Shown here: positions 26,322 through 43,132 of the stretch, one piece after another
Layout: the number at the start of each line of letters is the position of its first letter
Position numbering within the stretch: the stretch's first letter is position 1
DNA from: Bacteroidales bacterium
GTDB taxonomy: Bacteria; Bacteroidota; Bacteroidia; Bacteroidales; F082
Reading direction: 5' to 3'
Length of the DNA: 64,000 nt
Assembly: GCA_017395365.1 (NCBI GenBank)
Contig: JAFPUN010000017.1
Span: 1 to 64,000, forward strand
Notes under the pieces: generated by a model
Seen by the model: the letters and a program-made list of their open reading frames with translations, nothing else
Told to the model about the DNA's origin: nothing
Database searches by the model: none
Translations under genes and position numbers: made by a program

Positions 26322-26783
26322 ATGACAAAAATCCTCTTCATCTGCCACGGCAACATCTGCCGAAGTCCCATGGCCGAGTTTGTGATGAAACACCTCGTCG
26401 CAGAGGCGGGTTTGAGTGACCAATATGAGATACAATCTGCGGCGACCTCAACCGAGGAAATCGGCAATCCCGTCTATCCGCCAGCGCGGCGCAAGTTGGC
26501 CGAACACGGCATTGGCTGCGAGGGCAAGACCGCCCGCCAAATGACGCGGCAGGACTATGCCTATTATGACTACATCATCGCCATGGACCGCAACAACCTC
26601 CGCAACCTGAAGCGGATGTTTGGCGATGATACCGACCACAAAATCAGCCTATTAATGGACTATACTCACAGACCTAGTGATGTCGCCGACCCTTGGTACA
26701 CAGGTGATTTTGAGGCCACTTGGATAGATGTCTTTGAAGGTTGCAAAGGACTATTGGCCTATTTGGAGGAGACTCGACAATAA
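26322..26783 (+). CDS. Low-molecular-weight protein-tyrosine phosphatase
   Basis: This is a 153-residue cytoplasmic phosphatase. The phosphate-binding loop CHGNICRS (C-x5-R-S) is at residues ~8-15 and the general-acid Asp lies in VADPWYTGDFE. The family acts on bacterial tyrosine kinases controlling capsule or exopolysaccharide, or on small phosphorylated compounds; no kinase or polysaccharide locus is nearby. It is five bases upstream of the M15 peptidase lipoprotein and probably shares its transcript. Confidence 0.93.
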   Translation: MTKILFICHGNICRSPMAEFVMKHLVAEAGLSDQYEIQSAATSTEEIGNPVYPPARRKLAEHGIGCEGKTARQMTRQDYAYYDYIIAMDRNNLRNLKRMFGDDTDHKISLLMDYTHRPSDVADPWYTGDFEATWIDVFEGCKGLLAYLEETRQ

Positions 26784-26787
26784 ACCT

Positions 26788-27537
26788 ATGAAAAACTTTT
26801 GCCATACAGTTTTTCTCTTGTTGTGTTTTGGCCTCATGGTCTCTTGCGGTAGCAATACCCAAAGCCAGACCGGAGAACCAGCGACCACCGAGGTGCAAGA
26901 CACCATTTCCGTAGAGGAAGCGGTCGCCCCGGTCGCCTTCCAAGCCGAAGACACCCTATGTTATCATGGCTATGTATTCGCCTCCCAACCCATTCCCGAG
27001 GAAGTGAGAGCCCGGATGCAAGGCAAGTCAATGAAGGACAAGGCCAACATAGGCTATGACGACCTCCGTTATCTCACCCTCTATTATTACGACTTCGACA
27101 ATCACATCCAACAAGGCGAGATGGTGTGCAACAAGGCCATCGCCCATGACCTGTTGTGTATCTTCAAGACATTGTTTATGGAGGCCTATCCCATCTACAG
27201 CATCCGGCTGGTGGACGACTTCGACGCTTCCGACGAGGCTTCCATGCAAGCCAACAACAGCTCCTGTTTCAACTACCGCACCATCGCTGGTTCCTGGAGA
27301 CTATCCCGTCATGCCTTTGGGATGGCCGTCGACATCAATCCCTTGCAGAACCCTTGCGTAAGAGGCTCACGCATCCGCCCTTCCACGGCCACCGACTTTG
27401 CGGACCGAAGCAAGGACTTCCCACATAAAATCGATGATAACGATTTCTGCAAAAAGACTTTTGAATCGCATGGTTTCCGTTGGGGCGGCCGCTGGCGCAG
27501 CTTGAAGGACTACCAGCATTTCGAGAGGAGGAAATGA
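26788..27537 (+). CDS. M15-type D,D-peptidase lipoprotein
   Basis: This 249-residue lipoprotein (lipobox MVSC) has a C-terminal peptidase M15 domain of the VanY/D-alanyl-D-alanine carboxypeptidase type. Zinc ligands are visible in SRHAFGMAVDINP (HxxxxxxD) and in the terminal DYQHFE. Such enzymes trim peptide stems of peptidoglycan. The start at 26788 gives a proper lipoprotein signal; the longer frame from 26728 overlaps the phosphatase. Two decayed copies of its 3' end occur at 39385-39543 and 41394-41448 and flank the second AAA ATPase. Confidence 0.88.
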   Translation: MKNFCHTVFLLLCFGLMVSCGSNTQSQTGEPATTEVQDTISVEEAVAPVAFQAEDTLCYHGYVFASQPIPEEVRARMQGKSMKDKANIGYDDLRYLTLYYYDFDNHIQQGEMVCNKAIAHDLLCIFKTLFMEAYPIYSIRLVDDFDASDEASMQANNSSCFNYRTIAGSWRLSRHAFGMAVDINPLQNPCVRGSRIRPSTATDFADRSKDFPHKIDDNDFCKKTFESHGFRWGGRWRSLKDYQHFERRK

Positions 27538-28272: not shown

Positions 28273-28371
28273 CTTGAAAAGGTGTAAATTTTGATAGAAA
28301 ACCTCCTTGAAAAGGTGCAAAAAGTATAGAAAAAATTGCTTGAAAAGGTGCAAAAGTTATATCTTTGCAGC
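28273..28371 (+). repeat. Three 33-bp-period direct repeats before ATPase A
   Basis: The core CTTGAAAAGGTGYAAA begins at 28273, 28306 and 28339, an exact 33-bp period. Between cores the sequence is AT-rich and only weakly conserved (TAGAAAA). The third unit contains the promoter: TTG at 28340-28342 and TATCTTTG at 28360-28367. Placement over the promoter suggests an operator array for the downstream ATPase gene. Confidence 0.85.
28340..28367 (+). promoter_or_regulatory. Promoter of ATPase A inside the repeat array
   Basis: TTG (28340-28342) and TATCTTTG (28360-28367) have a 17-base spacer. The ATG at 28376 follows 8 bases later, giving a very short leader. The -33 TTG is itself part of the third repeat core. 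Confidence 0.65.
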
Positions 28372-28375
28372 CGTT

Positions 28376-29722
28376 ATGAGACGAAAAGTTTACGATAAGT
28401 TATTGAAATGGAAGGCGGAAGACCAAGGCCGTGTGGCCATTCTGCTTGACGGTGCACGGCGTGTTGGAAAGAGTTATATCGCCCGTGAGTTTGCCAAAGA
28501 GTATAAATCGGCCATTTTTGTGGATTTCAGCGACATGTCGCAGCCATTGCGCCACATCTTCGACAACTATCTGCATGACCGCGAAGAGTTGTTTCTTCAG
28601 CTCCAGTTGCACTTTCATGTGACCTTGCATGAGCGCAACTCCTTGATTGTGTTCGACGAGGTTCAAGAGTATCCGCAAGCGCGGGCGGCCATCAAGCATT
28701 TGGTGGCCGACGGGCGTTATGATTACATCGAGACTGGCTCGTTGGTTTCCATCAACAAGAATGTCAAGGACATACTGATTCCATCGGAAGAGAGGCGCAT
28801 CAAGATGTATCCTATGGATTTCGAGGAATTTCTTTGGGCTTTGGGCGACGAGATGATGATGCCTTTCGTCAAAAACTGCTTTGAAAAGAAACGGCCACTT
28901 GGCCCCGTCCATGCCAAGGCGATGGATTATTTCCGCAAATACTTGCTGATTGGCGGAATGCCTCAAGTGGTGAAGAACTTTGTCGAACATCGCGATTTCC
29001 GCAAGGTCGACAGGGAAAAACGCATGATCCTCGACCTGTATCGTCAGGACATCGAAAAACATGCTGACCGCCTTGAAAAGAAGGTGAAAAGCATTTTCGA
29101 CACCATCCCTGCTGAACTTCAGCGCCATGAAAAGAAATTCCGTTTGGCGGATATAGATAAAAATGCCAAGTTCCGCAGCTACGAGTCAAGTTTCGTATGG
29201 CTAGACGAGGCTCGTGTGGTAAATCTTTGCTTTGCCGCCACCGAGCCGAATGTGGGTATGGGGCTGAAATTGGACAATATGCGAGTAAAGTGCTATTTTG
29301 CCGACACGGGGCTGTTGGTTTCCCATGCTTTTGACGAAAACGAGTTGATGGACAACAACTTATACCAAAAACTCTTGTTGGACAAATTAGAGATTAATAA
29401 AGGTATGCTGGTGGAAAACATCGTGGCGCAGATGTTGGCGGCAGCTGGACACAAACTATATTTTTACAGCAACGCTTCTCGTGATGATGCCGAGGAAAGA
29501 ATGGAAATTGATTTCTTGGTCAGGAAGCCGCAAATCACCTCACGGCACAACATCTCTCCCATCGAAGTGAAGTCGGGAGCAGGCTACAGCCTTTCCTCGC
29601 TGACGAAGTGCATCAACAAGTACAGTCCTTACCTCTCAACGCCGTACGTCTTACATTCAGCCGATTACAAGGAGGAAGGCAAAATCACCTACCTGCCACT
29701 GTATATGACGTCGTTGTTATAG
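28376..29722 (+). CDS. AAA_14/DUF4143-type ATPase A
   Basis: This is a 448-residue ATPase. The N-terminal AAA domain has Walker A LLDGARRVGKSYIA (residues ~23-36) and Walker B SLIVFDEVQEYP, then YIETGSLVSINKNV as sensor-like segment. The C-terminal half resembles DUF4143 and holds an EIDFLV...ISPIEVKSG pattern (E-x-D ... E-x-K) like PD-(D/E)XK nucleases. Such proteins are widespread in Bacteroidetes and archaea and their role is unknown. The start at 28376 follows the promoter; the longer frame from 28307 begins inside the repeats. It is a paralogue of the gene at 39616-40950, and both are preceded by 33-bp repeats. Confidence 0.87.
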   Translation: MRRKVYDKLLKWKAEDQGRVAILLDGARRVGKSYIAREFAKEYKSAIFVDFSDMSQPLRHIFDNYLHDREELFLQLQLHFHVTLHERNSLIVFDEVQEYPQARAAIKHLVADGRYDYIETGSLVSINKNVKDILIPSEERRIKMYPMDFEEFLWALGDEMMMPFVKNCFEKKRPLGPVHAKAMDYFRKYLLIGGMPQVVKNFVEHRDFRKVDREKRMILDLYRQDIEKHADRLEKKVKSIFDTIPAELQRHEKKFRLADIDKNAKFRSYESSFVWLDEARVVNLCFAATEPNVGMGLKLDNMRVKCYFADTGLLVSHAFDENELMDNNLYQKLLLDKLEINKGMLVENIVAQMLAAAGHKLYFYSNASRDDAEERMEIDFLVRKPQITSRHNISPIEVKSGAGYSLSSLTKCINKYSPYLSTPYVLHSADYKEEGKITYLPLYMTSLL

Positions 29723-38155: not shown

Positions 38156-39373
38156 ATGAAAAGAATCATCATATTATTGGTTGCCTGCCTGACCAGTGGT
38201 ATGTTACTAGCCAACCATTGGACACCGATACCTGAAGGATGGTATTCGCAGTCCACAACGATTCGGGGAGTCGTCCTAATTAATGGCATCGAACAGTATT
38301 CTGATCAGTTGGAACTAGGCATTTTCTGCGGTGACGAATGTCGTGGCTCGGCCATTGCTGCGGAATTTTTCATCACACACCGTTTTATTGCCGACGTAAA
38401 CGTATATGGAGAAAACGGCCATCAGTTGAGCTTCAGGCTCTATGATCATAGCCAAGAGAAGGAGCTTCAGCTTACGCCTCCAGAAGGCGTAGTCTTTACC
38501 GAAGATGGTTATGGTCAATGGCTCGACCCTTGCGTGTTTAATTTTACTTCATCTTCTGCCGAAATTACCAACCATTGGACACCCATTCCTGAAGGATGGT
38601 ATTCGCAATCCACAACGATTCGAGGTGTCATCTTAATCGACGATGTCGAGCAATACTCTGACCAGTTGGAGTTGGGCATTTTCTGCGGCGACGAATGTCG
38701 TGGATCGGCCATTGCAGCCGACTTCTTCATCACGCATCGTTACATTGCCGACGTGAATGTGTATGGTGAAAATGGCCATCAGTTGAGTTTCAGGCTCTAT
38801 GACCATAGCCAAGGGAAGGAGCTCGAGCTAACGCCACCGGAAAGCGTAGTCTTCACCGAGGATGGTTATGGCGAATGGCTTGAGCCTTGTGAGTTCAATT
38901 TCGTAAGTGTAGCGACAACACAGACCTCTCTTCTTGCCCAAGGATGGAACTGGTGGGCTCCAACCGTGTCCACCAGCATAGAGGCTGTTGAGGACGCTAT
39001 TGGAAACGCGTTCGTGTCTATTCAATCTAAGCAGGGGCCAGTCAGTGGCGAGGCTACAGCTGGCGCCATGTATAGGATCCTAACCAACGCAGCATGCACA
39101 TTTAGCCTGAGCGGCATGCCAATGAGCTCTGTCACGGTCGACATAGAGCCTGGGGTCAACTGGTTCGGCTTCATGGGAGCACAACCCACAGTCATCAGCG
39201 ATGCCATTAGCATTACTGCTAGCGTGGGCGACAAAATCATATCACAAAATGAAGGCTTCGCCATATTTACCTCCGATGGGTGGCAAGGTACTCTAAGCCA
39301 GCTAAAGCCTGGCTACGGATACCTTTACACATCAAGCGAAAACAAAACACTCATAATTGAGACTGGGGACTGA
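38156..39373 (+). CDS. Exported protein with two NHWTP modules
   Basis: This is a 405-residue exported protein with signal peptide MKRIIILLVACLTSGMLLA. Residues 20-130 and 139-249 are two copies of a 111-residue module (NHWTPIPEGWYSQSTTIRGV ... LELGIFCGDECRGSAIAA ... FTEDGYG). The C-terminal part has the GWNWWAPTVS / VNWFGFMGA / PGYGYLYTS pattern shared with the end of the giant protein. Unlike its neighbour it lacks a T9SS sorting domain. It starts 6 bases after the giant gene, so they are co-expressed; a partner or accessory role on the surface is likely. The module's family was not recognised. Confidence 0.82.
   Translation: MKRIIILLVACLTSGMLLANHWTPIPEGWYSQSTTIRGVVLINGIEQYSDQLELGIFCGDECRGSAIAAEFFITHRFIADVNVYGENGHQLSFRLYDHSQEKELQLTPPEGVVFTEDGYGQWLDPCVFNFTSSSAEITNHWTPIPEGWYSQSTTIRGVILIDDVEQYSDQLELGIFCGDECRGSAIAADFFITHRYIADVNVYGENGHQLSFRLYDHSQGKELELTPPESVVFTEDGYGEWLEPCEFNFVSVATTQTSLLAQGWNWWAPTVSTSIEAVEDAIGNAFVSIQSKQGPVSGEATAGAMYRILTNAACTFSLSGMPMSSVTVDIEPGVNWFGFMGAQPTVISDAISITASVGDKIISQNEGFAIFTSDGWQGTLSQLKPGYGYLYTSSENKTLIIETGD
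38213..38545 (+). repeat. NHWTP module copy 2
   Basis: This is the first module of the 38156 gene. Its core YSQSTTI, QLELGIFCGDECRGSAIAA, ADVNVYGENGHQLSFRLYD is shared almost unchanged with copies 1 and 3. Confidence 0.88.
38570..38902 (+). repeat. NHWTP module copy 3
   Basis: This is the second module of the 38156 gene, 24 bases after copy 2. The short linker and close DNA identity indicate tandem duplication. Confidence 0.88.
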
Positions 39374-39384
39374 CAACAACCGCC

Positions 39385-39543
39385 ATCCAGCCATCAACAG
39401 CAGGAGATTATGTGGATAGAAGCAAGGATTTCTCTCACAAAATCGATGAGGATGACTTCTGCAAGGAGGTCTTTACCTCGTTTGGCTTTCGCTGGGGCGG
39501 CCACTGGCGCAGCGTGAAGGACTACCAGCATTTCGAGAAGTGA
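39385..39543 (+). pseudogene. Decayed 3' end of an M15 peptidase gene
   Basis: In one frame this reads IQPSTAGDYVDRSKDFSHK...FRWGGHWRSVKDYQHFEK and stop, matching the last ~50 residues of the intact M15 peptidase at 26788-27537 (PSTATDFADRSKDFPHK ... WGGRWRSLKDYQHFE). No upstream part of the gene remains. It precedes ATPase B on the opposite strand and is followed by the GGGCGAAA hairpin. Confidence 0.8.
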
Positions 39544-39551
39544 ACCCACGT

Positions 39552-39592
39552 GGGCGAAACCAACCTGTTTTGGGAAGATTTCGCCCGTTTTT
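39552..39592 (+). terminator. GGGCGAAA...TTTCGCCC terminator
   Basis: GGGCGAAA (39552-39559) pairs with TTTCGCCC (39579-39586) and is followed by GTTTTT. The same hairpin follows the second M15 remnant (41456-41493), so peptidase tail and terminator were copied together. Confidence 0.7.
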
Positions 39593-39615
39593 ACCCCAAA
39601 TAAGCCATCATGGCG

Positions 39616-40950
39616 TCACAACAATCCTGCCATGTAAGCTGGTACAAGCAAGGTGTTGTCATCCTTGCGAAGCTCTTTGGTGTAGATGAGGTAGCGCTCT
39701 CCGATCCGTGATGGGAACTTTTGGCAGAAAGCGTCCAACGAAGCATGGGAGCTATAGCTTCCCGATTTCACTTCCAATGGGCATAGCTTTGCTTCTCGCG
39801 AAAGCAGGAAATCCACCTCGTAGTTATGCCTGTCGTCTTTGGGCCATGTGTAGTAGTAAAGTTCGTTACCTGCGCTGCGAAGCATCTGTGCCACAAGGTT
39901 CTCATACACATAGCCAAGATTGGCGGGCAGGCGGTCGGCAAGCAGTTTGTCGTATAGGATGTTTTCGGTGAAACTTTTGTCCCAAAAAGCCAATGTAACC
40001 ATCAGTCCCGTGTCGCCCACATACAACTTGAATCGGCTTCTGTCTTCGCTCAAAGGCAAGCCTACTTGAGGATCGGTGACGTGGAATGCGAAATTGACCG
40101 TCTTGCTTTCCTCCAAGGCAATCAGATATTCCTCCATCTTCTCCGTTTTCACACCTTTGACAATGGATGTCGGATAGAACCGCGATACCCCACGCGAAAG
40201 CATCGATGGTATGGAACTGAAGAGTCTCCCTATTTTCCCCGTCTTGTCAATCTTGCGGAAATCGTCAATGTAGAGCTTTATGATTTTGCGTTTCATGGAA
40301 TCAACCGCCCGCAGGTTTTTCGTGCCCAAATATTCGCTCACCGCTTGCGGCATACCACCTACAAGCATATACAGCCTGAGGCTGCGCATGTGCTGGCGGT
40401 TCATGTCGGCACCGAGCGAGGCTTTTTTGTCCAATAGCTGCCTCAAAAGTGGGACGGTAGCCGTGTCGCCCATGGCCCAACAGAATTCCTCGTAATCCAT
40501 CGGAAACATCTCTATCCTGTCTTCCTCGCTGGGAATGGTGATGCCGTCGGTGTTTTGGCGTATGCTGATGAGCGAACCTGTTTCAATGTAATCATACCTG
40601 CCGTCTTGCACCAAGTATTTGATGGCTTGTCGTGCCTTCGGGCATTGTTGCACTTCGTCAAAGATGATAACGGACTCGCGCTGGCGCAACGTGGTGCGAT
40701 AGGCATTTTGTAGGTATAGGAAAATATAGTCCAAATCCACCAGGTCGTCGAACAGGCTCTTTATTTTCTCCGATACCTTGTTGAAATCGACAAGGATATA
40801 CGACTTGTATTCTTGCTTGGCGAATTGTTCCACAACCGTCGACTTGCCGATGCGTCGAGCACCTTCCACCAAGAGGGCGGTCCTTCCGTGGTTCTGCTCT
40901 TTCCAATCAAGCATCTGCTGGTAAATTTTCCGTTGAAAAATGTAGTCCAT
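39616..40950 (-). CDS. AAA_14/DUF4143-type ATPase B
   Basis: This 444-residue ATPase is paralogous to ATPase A (28376-29722). Walker A is LLVEGARRIGKSTVV (~26-40), Walker B is SVIIFDEVQQCP, and the next segment YIETGSLISIRQNTDG is nearly the same in both proteins. The C-terminal DUF4143-like half carries YEVDFLL ... LCPLEVKSG, again an E-x-D/E-x-K nuclease-like pattern. It stands alone on the minus strand, is preceded by three 33-bp direct repeats, and is bracketed by two direct copies of the M15 peptidase 3' end. Function is unknown for the family. Confidence 0.87.
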   Translation of the reverse strand: MDYIFQRKIYQQMLDWKEQNHGRTALLVEGARRIGKSTVVEQFAKQEYKSYILVDFNKVSEKIKSLFDDLVDLDYIFLYLQNAYRTTLRQRESVIIFDEVQQCPKARQAIKYLVQDGRYDYIETGSLISIRQNTDGITIPSEEDRIEMFPMDYEEFCWAMGDTATVPLLRQLLDKKASLGADMNRQHMRSLRLYMLVGGMPQAVSEYLGTKNLRAVDSMKRKIIKLYIDDFRKIDKTGKIGRLFSSIPSMLSRGVSRFYPTSIVKGVKTEKMEEYLIALEESKTVNFAFHVTDPQVGLPLSEDRSRFKLYVGDTGLMVTLAFWDKSFTENILYDKLLADRLPANLGYVYENLVAQMLRSAGNELYYYTWPKDDRHNYEVDFLLSREAKLCPLEVKSGSYSSHASLDAFCQKFPSRIGERYLIYTKELRKDDNTLLVPAYMAGLL

Positions 40951-40975
40951 TGGATTCTTTATTTGAAATACGCTG

Positions 40976-41006
40976 CAAAATTACTAATAATCTTTGTATT
41001 ACACAA
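40976..41006 (-). promoter_or_regulatory. Promoter of ATPase B
   Basis: On the minus strand TAATTTTG (40983-40976) is preceded by TTTG near 41007-41004. The start codon at 40950 follows 25 bases later. The 33-bp repeats begin just upstream of the -33 box. Confidence 0.6.
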
Positions 41007-41020
41007 ATTATTGGAAAATA

Positions 41021-41103
41021 AATACTATCAATCCCCGAAGTTTTTTATCGAAAAATACTATCAATCCCCAAAGATTTTTCGATAATAATACTTTCAATCC
41101 CGT
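41021..41103 (-). repeat. Three 33-bp-period direct repeats before ATPase B
   Basis: The core AATACTATCAATCCCC (plus-strand reading) begins at 41021, 41054 and 41087, an exact 33-bp period; the third copy has CTTTCAATCC. The linkers contain TTTTTATCGA/TTTTTCGATA. The sequence is unrelated to the ATPase A repeats, but number and period are the same. Confidence 0.85.
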
Positions 41104-41215
41104 TTTTCATCATAACCAACAGAAATTCGTCATAATTCGCACAAACGATAAAAAATGTTACTTTGCGTGAAAGATAAGGCTGTCTTACCGTTGAGGGAAT
41201 CATAACATCTCATGA

Positions 41216-41273
41216 TTTAGACTATGCAAAGTCTTTTTTCAATCATTTTTTAGACTATGGAAAGTCTTTTTTC
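41216..41273 (+). repeat. Orphan pair of 33-bp-period repeats
   Basis: TTTAGACTATGCAAAGTC and TTTAGACTATGGAAAGTC, each followed by TTTTTTC, begin at 41216 and 41249, again 33 bp apart, with 24 of 25 bases identical. Each core has a GACT...AGTC inverted pair. No intact ATPase gene follows; a short coding fragment does. Confidence 0.8.
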
Positions 41274-41279
41274 GTCAAT

Positions 41280-41366
41280 CGCAGGCATTTGTTTGAAGTG
41301 GACGGAAAGAACAAGACTTTCGACCAAATCAAGGATGTTCCAGACAGTTATCTTGCCTGCCTAAGA
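41280..41366 (+). pseudogene. Possible ATPase C-terminal remnant
   Basis: One frame reads RRHLFEVDGKNKTFDQIKDV then PDSYLAC. This resembles, from memory, the C-terminal tail of certain Bacteroidales ATP-binding proteins, but neither ATPase A nor B ends this way, so the link is tentative. It directly follows the orphan 33-bp repeats and runs into the second M15 peptidase remnant. Confidence 0.4.
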
Positions 41367-41393
41367 CATGGAAGTGCCTGTAGAGTTGGAGAT

Positions 41394-41448
41394 CGTTGGG
41401 GGCGGCCACTGCCGCACCGCAAAAGCCTACCAGCATTTCGAGAAGTGA
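41394..41448 (+). pseudogene. Second decayed M15 peptidase 3' end
   Basis: These ~53 bases match 39491-39543 at most positions (GGCGGCCACTG, CTACCAGCATTTCGAGAAG, stop) but carry an extra G that breaks the frame. In the restored frame it ends GGHCRTAKAYQHFEK. It is the right-hand copy of the direct repeat that flanks ATPase B. Confidence 0.7.
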
Positions 41449-41455
41449 ACCCTAT

Positions 41456-41493
41456 CGGGCGAAACCGACCTGTATTCGATTGGATTTCGCCCG
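41456..41493. terminator. CGGGCGAAA...TTTCGCCCG hairpin
   Basis: CGGGCGAAA (41456-41464) pairs with TTTCGCCCG (41485-41493). It matches the terminator after the first M15 remnant, and it also lies 4 bases after the end of the minus-strand kinase gene, so it may now terminate that operon. Confidence 0.65.
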
Positions 41494-41497
41494 AATC

Positions 41498-43132
41498 TTA
41501 TTTATCCCTCACCAACCTCACACTACGACCGCTGCATTTGTCGGTGGTGATGGAATGATAGAAGAAGCTGTTGCTGAAGTAGATGCCCAAGGCTTCTTTG
41601 GGGTTGAGGCAGGAAGACGACCAATACAGACCGTATTTGCCCACCAACCCCACGTAACCGAAGTCGCGGATGCCTGCCGCCGGCAGAAACACCGCCCCTT
41701 GGGCCTCTGCCTTCTCTGTCCAGAAAGGCTCGGTGAGATTGTTGGGGGTGTAGTCGACATCGTCGTCGTTATATTTCCGTAGTGAACAATAGGTGCTGTC
41801 CCAATCGTCAGGCAACAACAACAATCCCCAAACGCCATCAACAGCTGCCTTCGCAAAACGGATACCCGTGGCGGTAGTCCGCTTCTCAAGGATGTAATCC
41901 CATTCCTCGATGGTCAAAGTACGCCATACGTTTTCTTCGTTGCCGCCATTGCTGATGGCATTGCAGCCCCAGTCGGCCTGGCCATCGCCATCAAATAGGT
42001 TCAGCGTGTCAACGCCATAGGCGTTATATTGCCAAGCCTCGTCTTCAAAAACGTTGCGACTGCACCACGGCTGATAACATATCGCTCCATGATCACGCCC
42101 ACTGGTACCCCAGGCAAACAAATCCAACCAATTTACGCACTTCTCAGCAGAACCGTGGTTGGCATTGTCGCCGCCAATATAGTCAAACTGGTTTTCGGCA
42201 AATCGCCATGTGTTGATCGAGGGCTTGTATTGCAGGTTGCCCTTCGAGAAATACACCTGGTCGCCCGCCTCGTTGATGGTGAACAGCCCGTTGATGGCTC
42301 CTTCGGGCGCTGGTGGTCGGGGCGGCAAGGGCTCTTCCCTGAAACCTACCAGCCAAACGATGGCTCCTATCAGCAGCACAGCAGCCAAACCCAGCCCCAC
42401 TCTCGAGGAAATTCTTATCGTTTCGCTACGTTGCATGGCTTTTCGCAAAGCTTCTACGCTTTGGTAACGCGCTCTTGGATCTTCCTTCAGACAACGTTGC
42501 GTTATAGAATTCTTGGCCAAACCGAAACGCTGCAAAATCTTGCCCAAGGCATAGATGTCGGTGGCGGGACCAAACGACTCGGTCTTGGCGAACTGCTGTT
42601 CTGGCGCACAATACTCACGAGTGAAACCTACATCATGAAGATAACTCTCGCTCCAACCGAAACCTAAATCAATAAGCTTTACATGATGGCCTTTGTTGGT
42701 GATGAGTATGTTACTGGGCTTAAGGTCGAGATGTAGCATCTTCTTGTCGTGAAGATAGGACAAAGCCGAAAACAACTCGTCGCAGAATTGTTTCCTGTGC
42801 CCTTTCTCTTTGAAATAGTCAGGATGCTGGGCCACAAAAGCCTCAAGGCTGTCGCCATCAATGTAATCCATACGGATGAAAGGACCTTGTTCGTCCTCAT
42901 CGTAGGCAAAATAACGCACAATGTTGGGATGCTCCAACTCTATGCCAAGTTCAAACTCCTTGCGGAACAAACTCATGTAAGCCTCAGAAGAGCGCATGTC
43001 CTTCTTGGGCCGTTTGACGCAATAGACGCGGTTGTCCTTGACGAGACGGTAGCAATCACAGGTGCCACCACTATCAAACAACACTTCATCTTGATTGTGT
43101 TGTACAGGATTGATGAAATCGGAATCGCTCAT
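41498..43132 (-). CDS. Transmembrane Ser/Thr protein kinase with exported C-terminal domain
   Basis: This is a 544-residue Hanks-type kinase. The kinase domain (~15-235) has Lys-40 in VYCVKRPKK, catalytic loop HLDLKPSN (His-134 to Asn-141), a DLG variant of DFG (155-157), and a YCAPEQQ activation-segment end. A transmembrane helix (GLGLAAVLLIGAIVWLV, ~247-263) leads to a proline-rich linker. The ~260-residue outer domain (FSKGNLQYKPSINTWRFAENQ ... GLYWSSSCLN ... GRSVRLVRD) is of the FISUMP/C-type-lectin-like kind common in Bacteroidetes. The protein probably senses an extracytoplasmic ligand. It overlaps the upstream regulator gene by 1 base (TAATG), so they are coupled. Confidence 0.85.
   Translation of the reverse strand: MSDSDFINPVQHNQDEVLFDSGGTCDCYRLVKDNRVYCVKRPKKDMRSSEAYMSLFRKEFELGIELEHPNIVRYFAYDEDEQGPFIRMDYIDGDSLEAFVAQHPDYFKEKGHRKQFCDELFSALSYLHDKKMLHLDLKPSNILITNKGHHVKLIDLGFGWSESYLHDVGFTREYCAPEQQFAKTESFGPATDIYALGKILQRFGLAKNSITQRCLKEDPRARYQSVEALRKAMQRSETIRISSRVGLGLAAVLLIGAIVWLVGFREEPLPPRPPAPEGAINGLFTINEAGDQVYFSKGNLQYKPSINTWRFAENQFDYIGGDNANHGSAEKCVNWLDLFAWGTSGRDHGAICYQPWCSRNVFEDEAWQYNAYGVDTLNLFDGDGQADWGCNAISNGGNEENVWRTLTIEEWDYILEKRTTATGIRFAKAAVDGVWGLLLLPDDWDSTYCSLRKYNDDDVDYTPNNLTEPFWTEKAEAQGAVFLPAAGIRDFGYVGLVGKYGLYWSSSCLNPKEALGIYFSNSFFYHSITTDKCSGRSVRLVRDK

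What the first reader, a model, noticed from the sequence alone, without database searches (positions are those of the whole stretch)
39616..41103. Second ATPase with the same repeat number and period but a different repeat sequence
Cores AATACTATCAATCCCC start at 41021, 41054 and 41087, again three units exactly 33 bp apart, upstream of the paralogous ATPase. Conserved architecture with unrelated sequence suggests each ATPase co-evolves with its own cognate repeats, like a restriction or toxin-type specificity pair. The repeats sit just upstream of the -33 box here, but over the promoter in ATPase A.
Basis: partly seen in the sequence, partly recalled or inferred. Interest (0 to 1): 0.8.

Follow-up and report, generated by a model that had tools for sequence, protein, structure and literature searches.

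The report
Mobile ATPase genes with private repeats
A very common bacterial gene, listed as a candidate anti-virus gene, appears to travel as a small one-gene cassette that usually carries its own private set of evenly spaced DNA repeats in front of it, which suggests a self-regulated mobile element of an unfamiliar sort.

Summary
In detail: three 33-bp-spaced cores stand upstream of ATPase B (third copy 14/16) and, within two mismatches, nowhere else in the 2.1-Mb genome. The pattern is family-wide: 166 of 186 relatives examined, from several phyla, carry such an array, against 0 of 46 other window genes. Cores differ between sub-clades, change slowly between near-identical ATPases while spacers drift, and co-vary most with two ATPase segments (residues ~41-95 and ~251-285). 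Arrays are registered to the promoter in 33-bp steps. So ATPase and repeats look like a cognate pair, most likely protein plus operator. Further, array+promoter+ORF behaves as a mobile unit: 40 of 111 close pairs share exactly that unit and no flanks, three sites have 'empty' counterparts, and 16 of 86 loci show long direct flanking duplications against 7 of 991 shifted controls. No terminal inverted repeats or known recombinase were found. A second subfamily has 23-bp arrays. Both window ATPases match PADLOC's PDC-S01, an untested 'defence' candidate. That the ATPase moves itself is inferred. Restriction/toxin-type pairing is not supported.

The parts
39616..40950 (-). ATPase B ORF (444 aa): AAA_14 ATPase (24-157) + DUF4143 (230-397), with D380, E393, K395 invariant in 56 aligned relatives (PD-(D/E)XK-like nuclease); PADLOC PDC-S01
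   Evidence: nuclease reading from the recalled motif and from the statement on PDC-S01 in PMC12988326 (passage)
41020..41110 (-). cognate array: three ~20-bp recognition cores (about 41021-41043, 41054-41076, 41087-41109) at 33-bp period, read GGGGATTGATAGTATT on the minus strand
40976..40983 (-). -7 element TAATTTTG of the Bacteroidales-type promoter (motif recalled), about 60 nt from the start of the nearest core (27+33)
   Evidence: sequence; register statistics
41004..41007 (-). -33 element TTTG (motif recalled), lying in the array slot that has no recognisable core
   Evidence: sequence
39616..41110 (-). inferred mobile cassette: first repeat to stop codon
   Evidence: unit boundaries; empty sites of relatives (no empty site was found for this locus itself)
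39482..39597 (.). flanking direct duplication, copy 18 nt beyond the ATPase stop codon (M15-peptidase tail + terminator)
   Evidence: score 63; 99% of mismatched pairs at most 24
41386..41508 (.). flanking direct duplication, other copy; 283 bp from the array, so not abutting as in the clearest cases
28273..28356 (+). array of ATPase A: CTTGAAAAGGTG cores at 28273, 28306, 28339, third over the promoter
28376..29722 (+). ATPase A (AAA_14 + DUF4143, PDC-S01), ATG 28376; no flanking duplication detected

Best explanation
ATPase B is one member of a family of single-gene mobile cassettes. Each cassette consists of about three recognition sites at a 33-bp period (about three helical turns; 23 bp in another subfamily), a promoter placed in register with them, and one gene for an AAA+ ATPase with a DNA-binding middle part and a PD-(D/E)XK-type nuclease domain. 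SHOWN by sequence: the array of ATPase B is private to its gene; arrays of the family are constrained in their cores, and the cores change with the protein, most of all with two segments; in three cases the unit from (or just before) the array to the stop codon is present in one genome and absent in another, with 29 to about 105 bp of target duplicated. INFERRED: the ATPase binds its own array cooperatively on one face of the helix, contacting DNA through the segment after Walker A and a winged-helix-like segment, and so controls its own promoter, with a specificity that limits cross-talk between the ~20 sister genes of one cell; its nuclease makes offset nicks or a staggered break at the target, which gives the long duplications when the cassette is copied in. 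'Defence' could be a further role, or a label earned because mobile cassettes gather in islands.
For: Array in 103 of 109 genus loci and 72 of 77 loci from other genomes incl. Treponema, Atopobiaceae, Curtanaerobium, Victivallales, Clostridiales, and on an Agathobacter plasmid; 166 of 186 vs 0 of 46 other genes. Core/spacer anatomy on 156 loci (copy-to-copy identity is partly by construction, because arrays were located by it). Core vs spacer divergence between loci at >=90% protein identity 0.09 vs 0.33. Co-variation: partial r in 25-aa windows peaks at 51-85 (0.35-0.42) and 251-295 (0.18-0.21), at most 0.19 elsewhere; 0 of 300 permutations for regions 1-110 and 230-305, 174 and 298 of 300 for the other two. 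Promoter distances 26-27 nt in 59, 59-60 in 37, 92-93 in 2 of 134 loci. Private core of B: 3 hits in its genome. Mobile unit: 40 of 111 close pairs are homologous from the array to the stop codon only; the 23-bp subfamily, 30 of 30 loci with arrays, shows similar boundaries. Empty sites: L132 vs L191, 29-bp duplication; L131 vs L197, 59 bp, 101-105 with sister cassettes L108 and L110; L142 vs L322, 60 bp. Flanking direct duplications 20/108 vs 6/1283 mismatched, 12/76 vs 3/1124, 16/86 vs 7/991 shifted pseudo-cassettes.
Against: About four of five loci show no detectable flanking duplication, ATPase A among them; in ATPase B the left copy is 283 bp from the array; the loci counted are not all independent (L110/L112/L114 and L074/L086 share a site). 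Of 111 close pairs, 37 share both flanks (same site) and 34 fit neither simple class, e.g. homology running 43-187 bp past the stop. At the L142 site the absent segment includes ~100 bp before the array. The right end has no DNA-level constraint, no cognate core and no inverted repeat with the left end (0 of 79), which is odd for a self-recognised end. Recent copies within one genome were not seen: 20 own paralogs are at most 59% identical, 74 same-genome pairs at most 74%. Co-variation is partly shared ancestry, which label permutation does not remove; a circular-shift test of residues 230-305 is only at 0.034, and R306 and K371, outside both segments, are also among the top MI residues. No structure could be predicted, so 'winged helix' is recalled. 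In the 23-bp subfamily flanking duplication (score >=22) was seen in 1 of 28 loci and did not abut the unit.
Confidence: 0.6

Rival explanations
1. The ATPases are ordinary horizontally acquired genes (perhaps defence genes) with autoregulatory operator arrays; they spread passively by DNA uptake and illegitimate recombination, and selection keeps only the minimal working unit, operators to stop codon.
For: PADLOC PDC-S01 match; promoter-registered arrays; no recent intragenomic copies seen; no specific right end.
Against: Shared homology ends sharply at array and stop codon in 40 of 111 close pairs; long direct duplications abut the unit within 0-17 nt in several loci, e.g. L112, L114, L119, L262, L263, L229, L038, which passive insertion does not predict.
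Confidence: 0.25
2. Restriction- or toxin-like pair: the repeats mark self, or are the antidote, for a nuclease that attacks DNA lacking or carrying them.
For: Invariant nuclease-type residues; private repeats.
Against: No room for a second gene in the unit; the repeats of B are three, promoter-registered and confined to the locus, so they cannot mark the rest of the genome.
Confidence: 0.05
3. The array is an iteron-like origin: the ATPase is an initiator-like AAA+ protein (as archaeal Orc1/Cdc6, recalled) that replicates the cassette locally; the flanking duplications come from local over-replication and re-insertion, and one copy per specificity reflects iteron-type incompatibility.
For: Period of 22-23 or 33 bp, own promoter within or next to the array, co-variation in an AAA segment plus a winged-helix-like segment; no same-genome pair above 74% identity among those examined.
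Against: No unwinding region or extrachromosomal form was looked for; same-genome cores are not consistently more different than cross-genome ones.
Confidence: 0.08

Closest known systems
PDC-S01 (PADLOC phage defence candidate), AAA_14-DUF4143 / COG1373 ATPases
   Same: Best PDC-S01 model matches 1.7e-99 (ATPase B) and 6e-108 (ATPase A) over nearly the full length; the ATPase + PD-(D/E)XK architecture is stated for PDC-S01 in PMC12988326 (passages read)
   Different: The passages read mention no repeats, cassette structure or duplications; they say validation is pending for most such candidates
Insertion sequences / Tn7-type transposons (AAA+ helper plus nuclease; recalled)
   Same: Discrete unit, direct target duplication, AAA+ ATPase and a PD-(D/E)XK-type domain
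   Different: One protein, Pfam finds only AAA_14 and DUF4143, no terminal inverted repeats, duplications of 29-105 bp instead of a few bp
Homing endonuclease genes and Rpn-type recombination-promoting nucleases (recalled)
   Same: Single selfish gene with a nuclease
   Different: Homing leaves no target duplication and has no cognate operator array
Iteron plasmids and archaeal Orc1/Cdc6 with origin recognition boxes (recalled)
   Same: Phased direct repeats over the initiator's own promoter, AAA+ initiator with a winged helix
   Different: Chromosomal cassette, usually three sites at 33 bp, nuclease domain fused, no origin shown

Membership tests
PDC-S01 / AAA_14-DUF4143 ATPases | Profile match over the full protein | tested here: met
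PDC-S01 / AAA_14-DUF4143 ATPases | Anti-phage activity | not testable with these tools
   validation pending for most such candidates also according to PMC12988326 (passage)
Insertion sequence / DDE transposon | Terminal inverted repeats | tested here: not met
   0 of 79 loci at the score of 13, own mean 7.19 vs 7.23 for mismatched ends
Insertion sequence / DDE transposon | Direct target duplication at empty/filled sites | tested here: met
   3 sites, 29 to ~105 bp; longer than usual for IS (recalled)
Insertion sequence / DDE transposon | DDE, Tyr, Ser or HUH recombinase in the unit | tested here: not met
   Pfam on the two window ATPases: AAA_14 and DUF4143 only; in L132 the ATPase ORF fills all but ~165 nt of the absent segment; the ATPases of L132, L131, L142 were not scanned themselves
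Restriction-modification | Cognate methyltransferase or self-marking sites across the genome | tested here: not met
   core of B only at its own locus; no room for a second gene in the unit
Toxin-antitoxin | Two-component operon with antitoxin | tested here: not met
   the absent segments have room for one ORF; an RNA antitoxin is not excluded beyond the lack of an Rfam match at the window locus
Iteron-controlled replicon | Phased direct repeats overlapping or abutting the initiator's own promoter | tested here: met
   distances 26-27 (59), 59-60 (37), 92-93 (2) of 134 loci
Iteron-controlled replicon | Autonomous replication from the array | not testable with these tools
   needs an experiment

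The most novel reading that the evidence does not exclude
PDC-S01 / DUF4143 ATPases, counted among the commonest 'defence systems' of prokaryotes, are a new class of autonomous mobile element: one gene for an AAA+ ATPase-nuclease that recognises a private, helically phased repeat array forming its left end and operator, moves array-to-stop-codon by a mechanism giving target duplications of 29 to over 100 bp, and holds one copy per specificity in a genome.
Probability: 0.4. Interest if true: 0.95.

Novelty: categorically new. Interest (0 to 1): 0.85.

Why it matters
PDC-S01 is reported as the fourth most common defence system in prokaryotes (PMC12988326) and as the most frequent single locus in one rumen survey (10,358; PMC13356809), with validation pending. 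If its members are self-regulated mobile cassettes, defence counts based on them need rereading, and a very large natural library of protein-operator pairs, with a possibly readable specificity code in two protein segments, becomes available for testing. It also makes an open question testable: why such ATPases are so numerous and so diverse within single genomes.

Tried and rejected
Right-end signal: tested synonymous codon constraint near the stop codon, cognate core in the last 100 nt or after the stop, inverted or direct repeats between the ends: all negative. Cognate core upstream of arrays as a target signal: none. Selection for core orthogonality within a genome: not shown (87 loci, pairs of at least 55% identity; two of four filled bins lean one way, two the other or level). 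Flanking duplication of ATPase A: none. Structured RNA at 39300-41600: no Rfam match at gathering threshold. Solved structures: none at E<=0.01. NCBIfam: none. PHROGs: only a weak clamp-loader match for B. Empty sites on Bacteroides plasmids with a distant relative: from the feature names the locus looks like replacement within a hipB-like gene, not a clean insertion; left aside. Structure prediction with alignment A1 was asked many times (first, last) and was always answered busy; no structure was obtained.

Rows dropped and limits of the samples: the match lists are capped; I used 30 loci given by the tool plus 80 stretches chosen from the list. L024 (partial) dropped; L221 (partial), L253 and L258 (short upstream); L009 and L020 were not read (wrong or no ORF picked), L009's gene was read later as L130. 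One search used 156 of 186 loci (array score >=33, period 31-35, identity >=50%). promoter register uses 134 of 156 loci with a TAnnTTTG motif. partial correlations use 3406 pairs of protein distance 0.02-0.38. One search printed the best 90 of 115 pairs; one search recounts 111 pairs.

Full report
Observation. The three repeats are real: two identical 16-bp cores and a third with two mismatches, 33 bp apart, on the promoter side of a 444-aa AAA_14-DUF4143 ATPase. Within two mismatches the core occurs only at these three places in the 2.11-Mb genome (a 72.6% complete assembly), and the reversed control pattern never.

It is a family trait. The same genome holds 20 DUF4143 matches. Of the 18 whose upstream region was read, by eye and from lag scores: 33 bp (or 32) repeats in ten (L019 weak, two copies), 22-23 bp in three, about 52 bp in one, palindromic sites in two, none evident in L001 and L003. 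For relatives of ATPase B in 99 genomes of the genus (110 loci taken from a capped list), 103 of 109 usable loci exceed all 20 shuffles; of 80 loci from other sequenced genomes, 72 of 77 usable ones do, including isolates of Treponema, Segatella copri and Curtanaerobium and MAGs labelled Atopobiaceae, Victivallales and Clostridiales; an Agathobacter rectalis plasmid has one too. Together 166 of 186 reach an array score of 33, against 0 of 46 other window genes and 0 of 1413 random window stretches. A second subfamily, built on L006, has 23-bp arrays in 30 of 30 loci.

Anatomy. Aligned in register over 156 loci, the repeat is a ~20-bp core (AAATTTnGnG followed by variable positions) and a ~13-bp spacer: copy-to-copy identity is up to 0.97 in the core centre and 0.28-0.47 in the spacer; since arrays were located by copy identity, the core value is partly by construction. 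Two G positions are common to most loci; others are kept within a locus and differ between loci, as in a specificity code. The distance from the third copy to the -7 box is 26-27 nt in 59, 59-60 nt in 37 and 92-93 nt in 2 of 134 loci, most of the rest lying within one or two nt of these: the array is registered to the promoter in steps of one period. ATPase B is of the 60-nt class, with its -33 box in the slot that lacks a core; the last core of ATPase A covers its promoter.

Cognate pair. Core difference rises with protein distance: 0.10 at >=90% identity (180 pairs, 78 identical), 0.19, 0.39, 0.62 and 0.65 in the further bins of ten per cent. Cores are under constraint: at >=90% identity core positions differ by 0.09 and spacer positions by 0.33; at 80-90%, 0.17 and 0.55; at 60-70% the two are close (0.52, 0.60). 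After removing the effect of the rest of the protein, repeat difference correlates best with 25-residue windows starting at 51-71 (partial r 0.31-0.42) and at 251-271 (0.18-0.21); other windows range from -0.16 to 0.19, the 0.19 being the neighbouring one at 41. Region permutations: 0 of 300 reach the observed value for residues 1-110 and 230-305, 174 and 298 of 300 for 111-225 and 306-444. Mutual information ranks S262, A278, G241, N82, R306, K371 and R232 highest by residue; R306 and K371 lie outside the two segments. Of the top 40 pairs, 18 fall in 230-305 where 6.8 are expected, though a circular-shift test of that region is only at 0.034. By recalled knowledge of the family the second segment is a winged helix; no structure could be computed. 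Same-genome paralogs are not consistently more different than cross-genome pairs of the same identity, so I claim cognate recognition, not selected orthogonality.

A mobile unit. Of 111 close pairs of loci (>=80% DNA identity over >=1100 bp), 40 are homologous from the array to within -20 to +10 nt of the stop codon and no further; 37 share both flanks and so sit at the same site; 34 are mixed, 14 of them starting at the array but running past the stop (first seen). The 23-bp subfamily shows similar boundaries. Three filled/empty pairs were found. L132 against L191: left flank up to 2 nt before the array, right flank from the base after the stop codon, 29 bp shared and single in the empty site (one clean case among 14 candidates, most of which share only the left flank). 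L131 against L197: flanks at 93% over 2.4 kb and 94% over 1.5 kb, 59 bp shared, and 101-105 bp when sister cassettes L108 and L110 at the site are used. L142 against L322: 60 bp; here the absent segment includes ~100 bp before the array. The same target gene carries the 23-bp-type cassette in three other genomes, so sites are reused. Flanking direct duplications stand out in general: 20 of 108 loci against 6 of 1283 mismatched pairs and 2 of 108 in inverted orientation; 13 of 47 against 2 of 691; 12 of 76 against 3 of 1124; and 16 of 86 against 7 of 991 pseudo-cassettes of equal length shifted within the same loci, and 3 of 478 in the window. These sets overlap and some loci share one ancestral insertion. 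ATPase B itself is flanked by a ~120-bp duplication of an M15-peptidase tail with its terminator, the left copy 283 bp from the array; ATPase A has none.

What speaks against a classical transposon. There are no inverted ends (0 of 79), no cognate core at the right end, no codon constraint there, and no recent copies inside a genome among those examined. The ATPase carries Walker-type motifs and invariant D380, E393, K395, so offset nicking by its own nuclease is a natural but unproven source of the long duplications. Passive spread of a minimal functional unit is the main rival.

Known labels. Both ATPases match PADLOC PDC-S01. The passages I read call PDC-S01 the fourth most common defence across prokaryotes, an ATPase fused to a PD-(D/E)XK member, with validation pending for most such candidates (PMC12988326), and the most frequent individual locus in a survey of rumen genomes (PMC13356809). 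Searches of the paper library for DUF4143, PDC-S01, PF13635, PF13173 and COG1373 list 12 papers; in their titles and abstract starts I saw nothing on repeats or on the gene as a mobile unit; passages of three were read, the others seen only as listings. The library lacks most subscription papers.

Verdict. The cognate array is well supported (my estimate 0.85); that array-plus-gene is a mobile unit is well supported (0.8); that the ATPase moves itself is open (about 0.4). The rating 'categorically new' rests on the unit failing the tests for insertion sequence, restriction and toxin-antitoxin systems, and falls if passive spread is shown.

Noticed in passing
window 41210-41273: A second 33-bp-spaced pair (TTTAGACTATGSAAAGTCTTTTTTC, core with inverted symmetry) without an ATPase. 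In the genus only two other genomes of the 99 searched have it within 2 mismatches; in L343 about three such copies sit over the promoter of a DUF1846-like gene (name recalled), so promoter-registered 33-bp arrays may not be exclusive to the ATPases.
   Followed up: partly
window 26728-27537, 39411-39538, 41394-41443: One full M15 peptidase gene and two detached copies of its 3' end; short tails of this gene also turn up as short matches in several genomes of the genus.
   Followed up: partly
G014 (L142), G000 (L291), G053 (L292), G057 (L293): The same target gene end carries cassettes of two different subfamilies in different genomes, which hints at a preferred site.
   Followed up: partly
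L041: A cassette flanked by a duplicated ~240-bp piece that by eye reads as part of another ATPase-nuclease gene (not scanned).
   Followed up: no
L024 / L221 (99.7-100% identical copy of ATPase B): Surroundings resemble those in the window, but array, promoter and the first ~92-94 codons are missing.
   Followed up: no
L358 (Phocaeicola vulgatus plasmid): A distant relative lies next to or inside a hipB-like gene; by feature names related plasmids have HipA or an IS613 copy there.
   Followed up: partly
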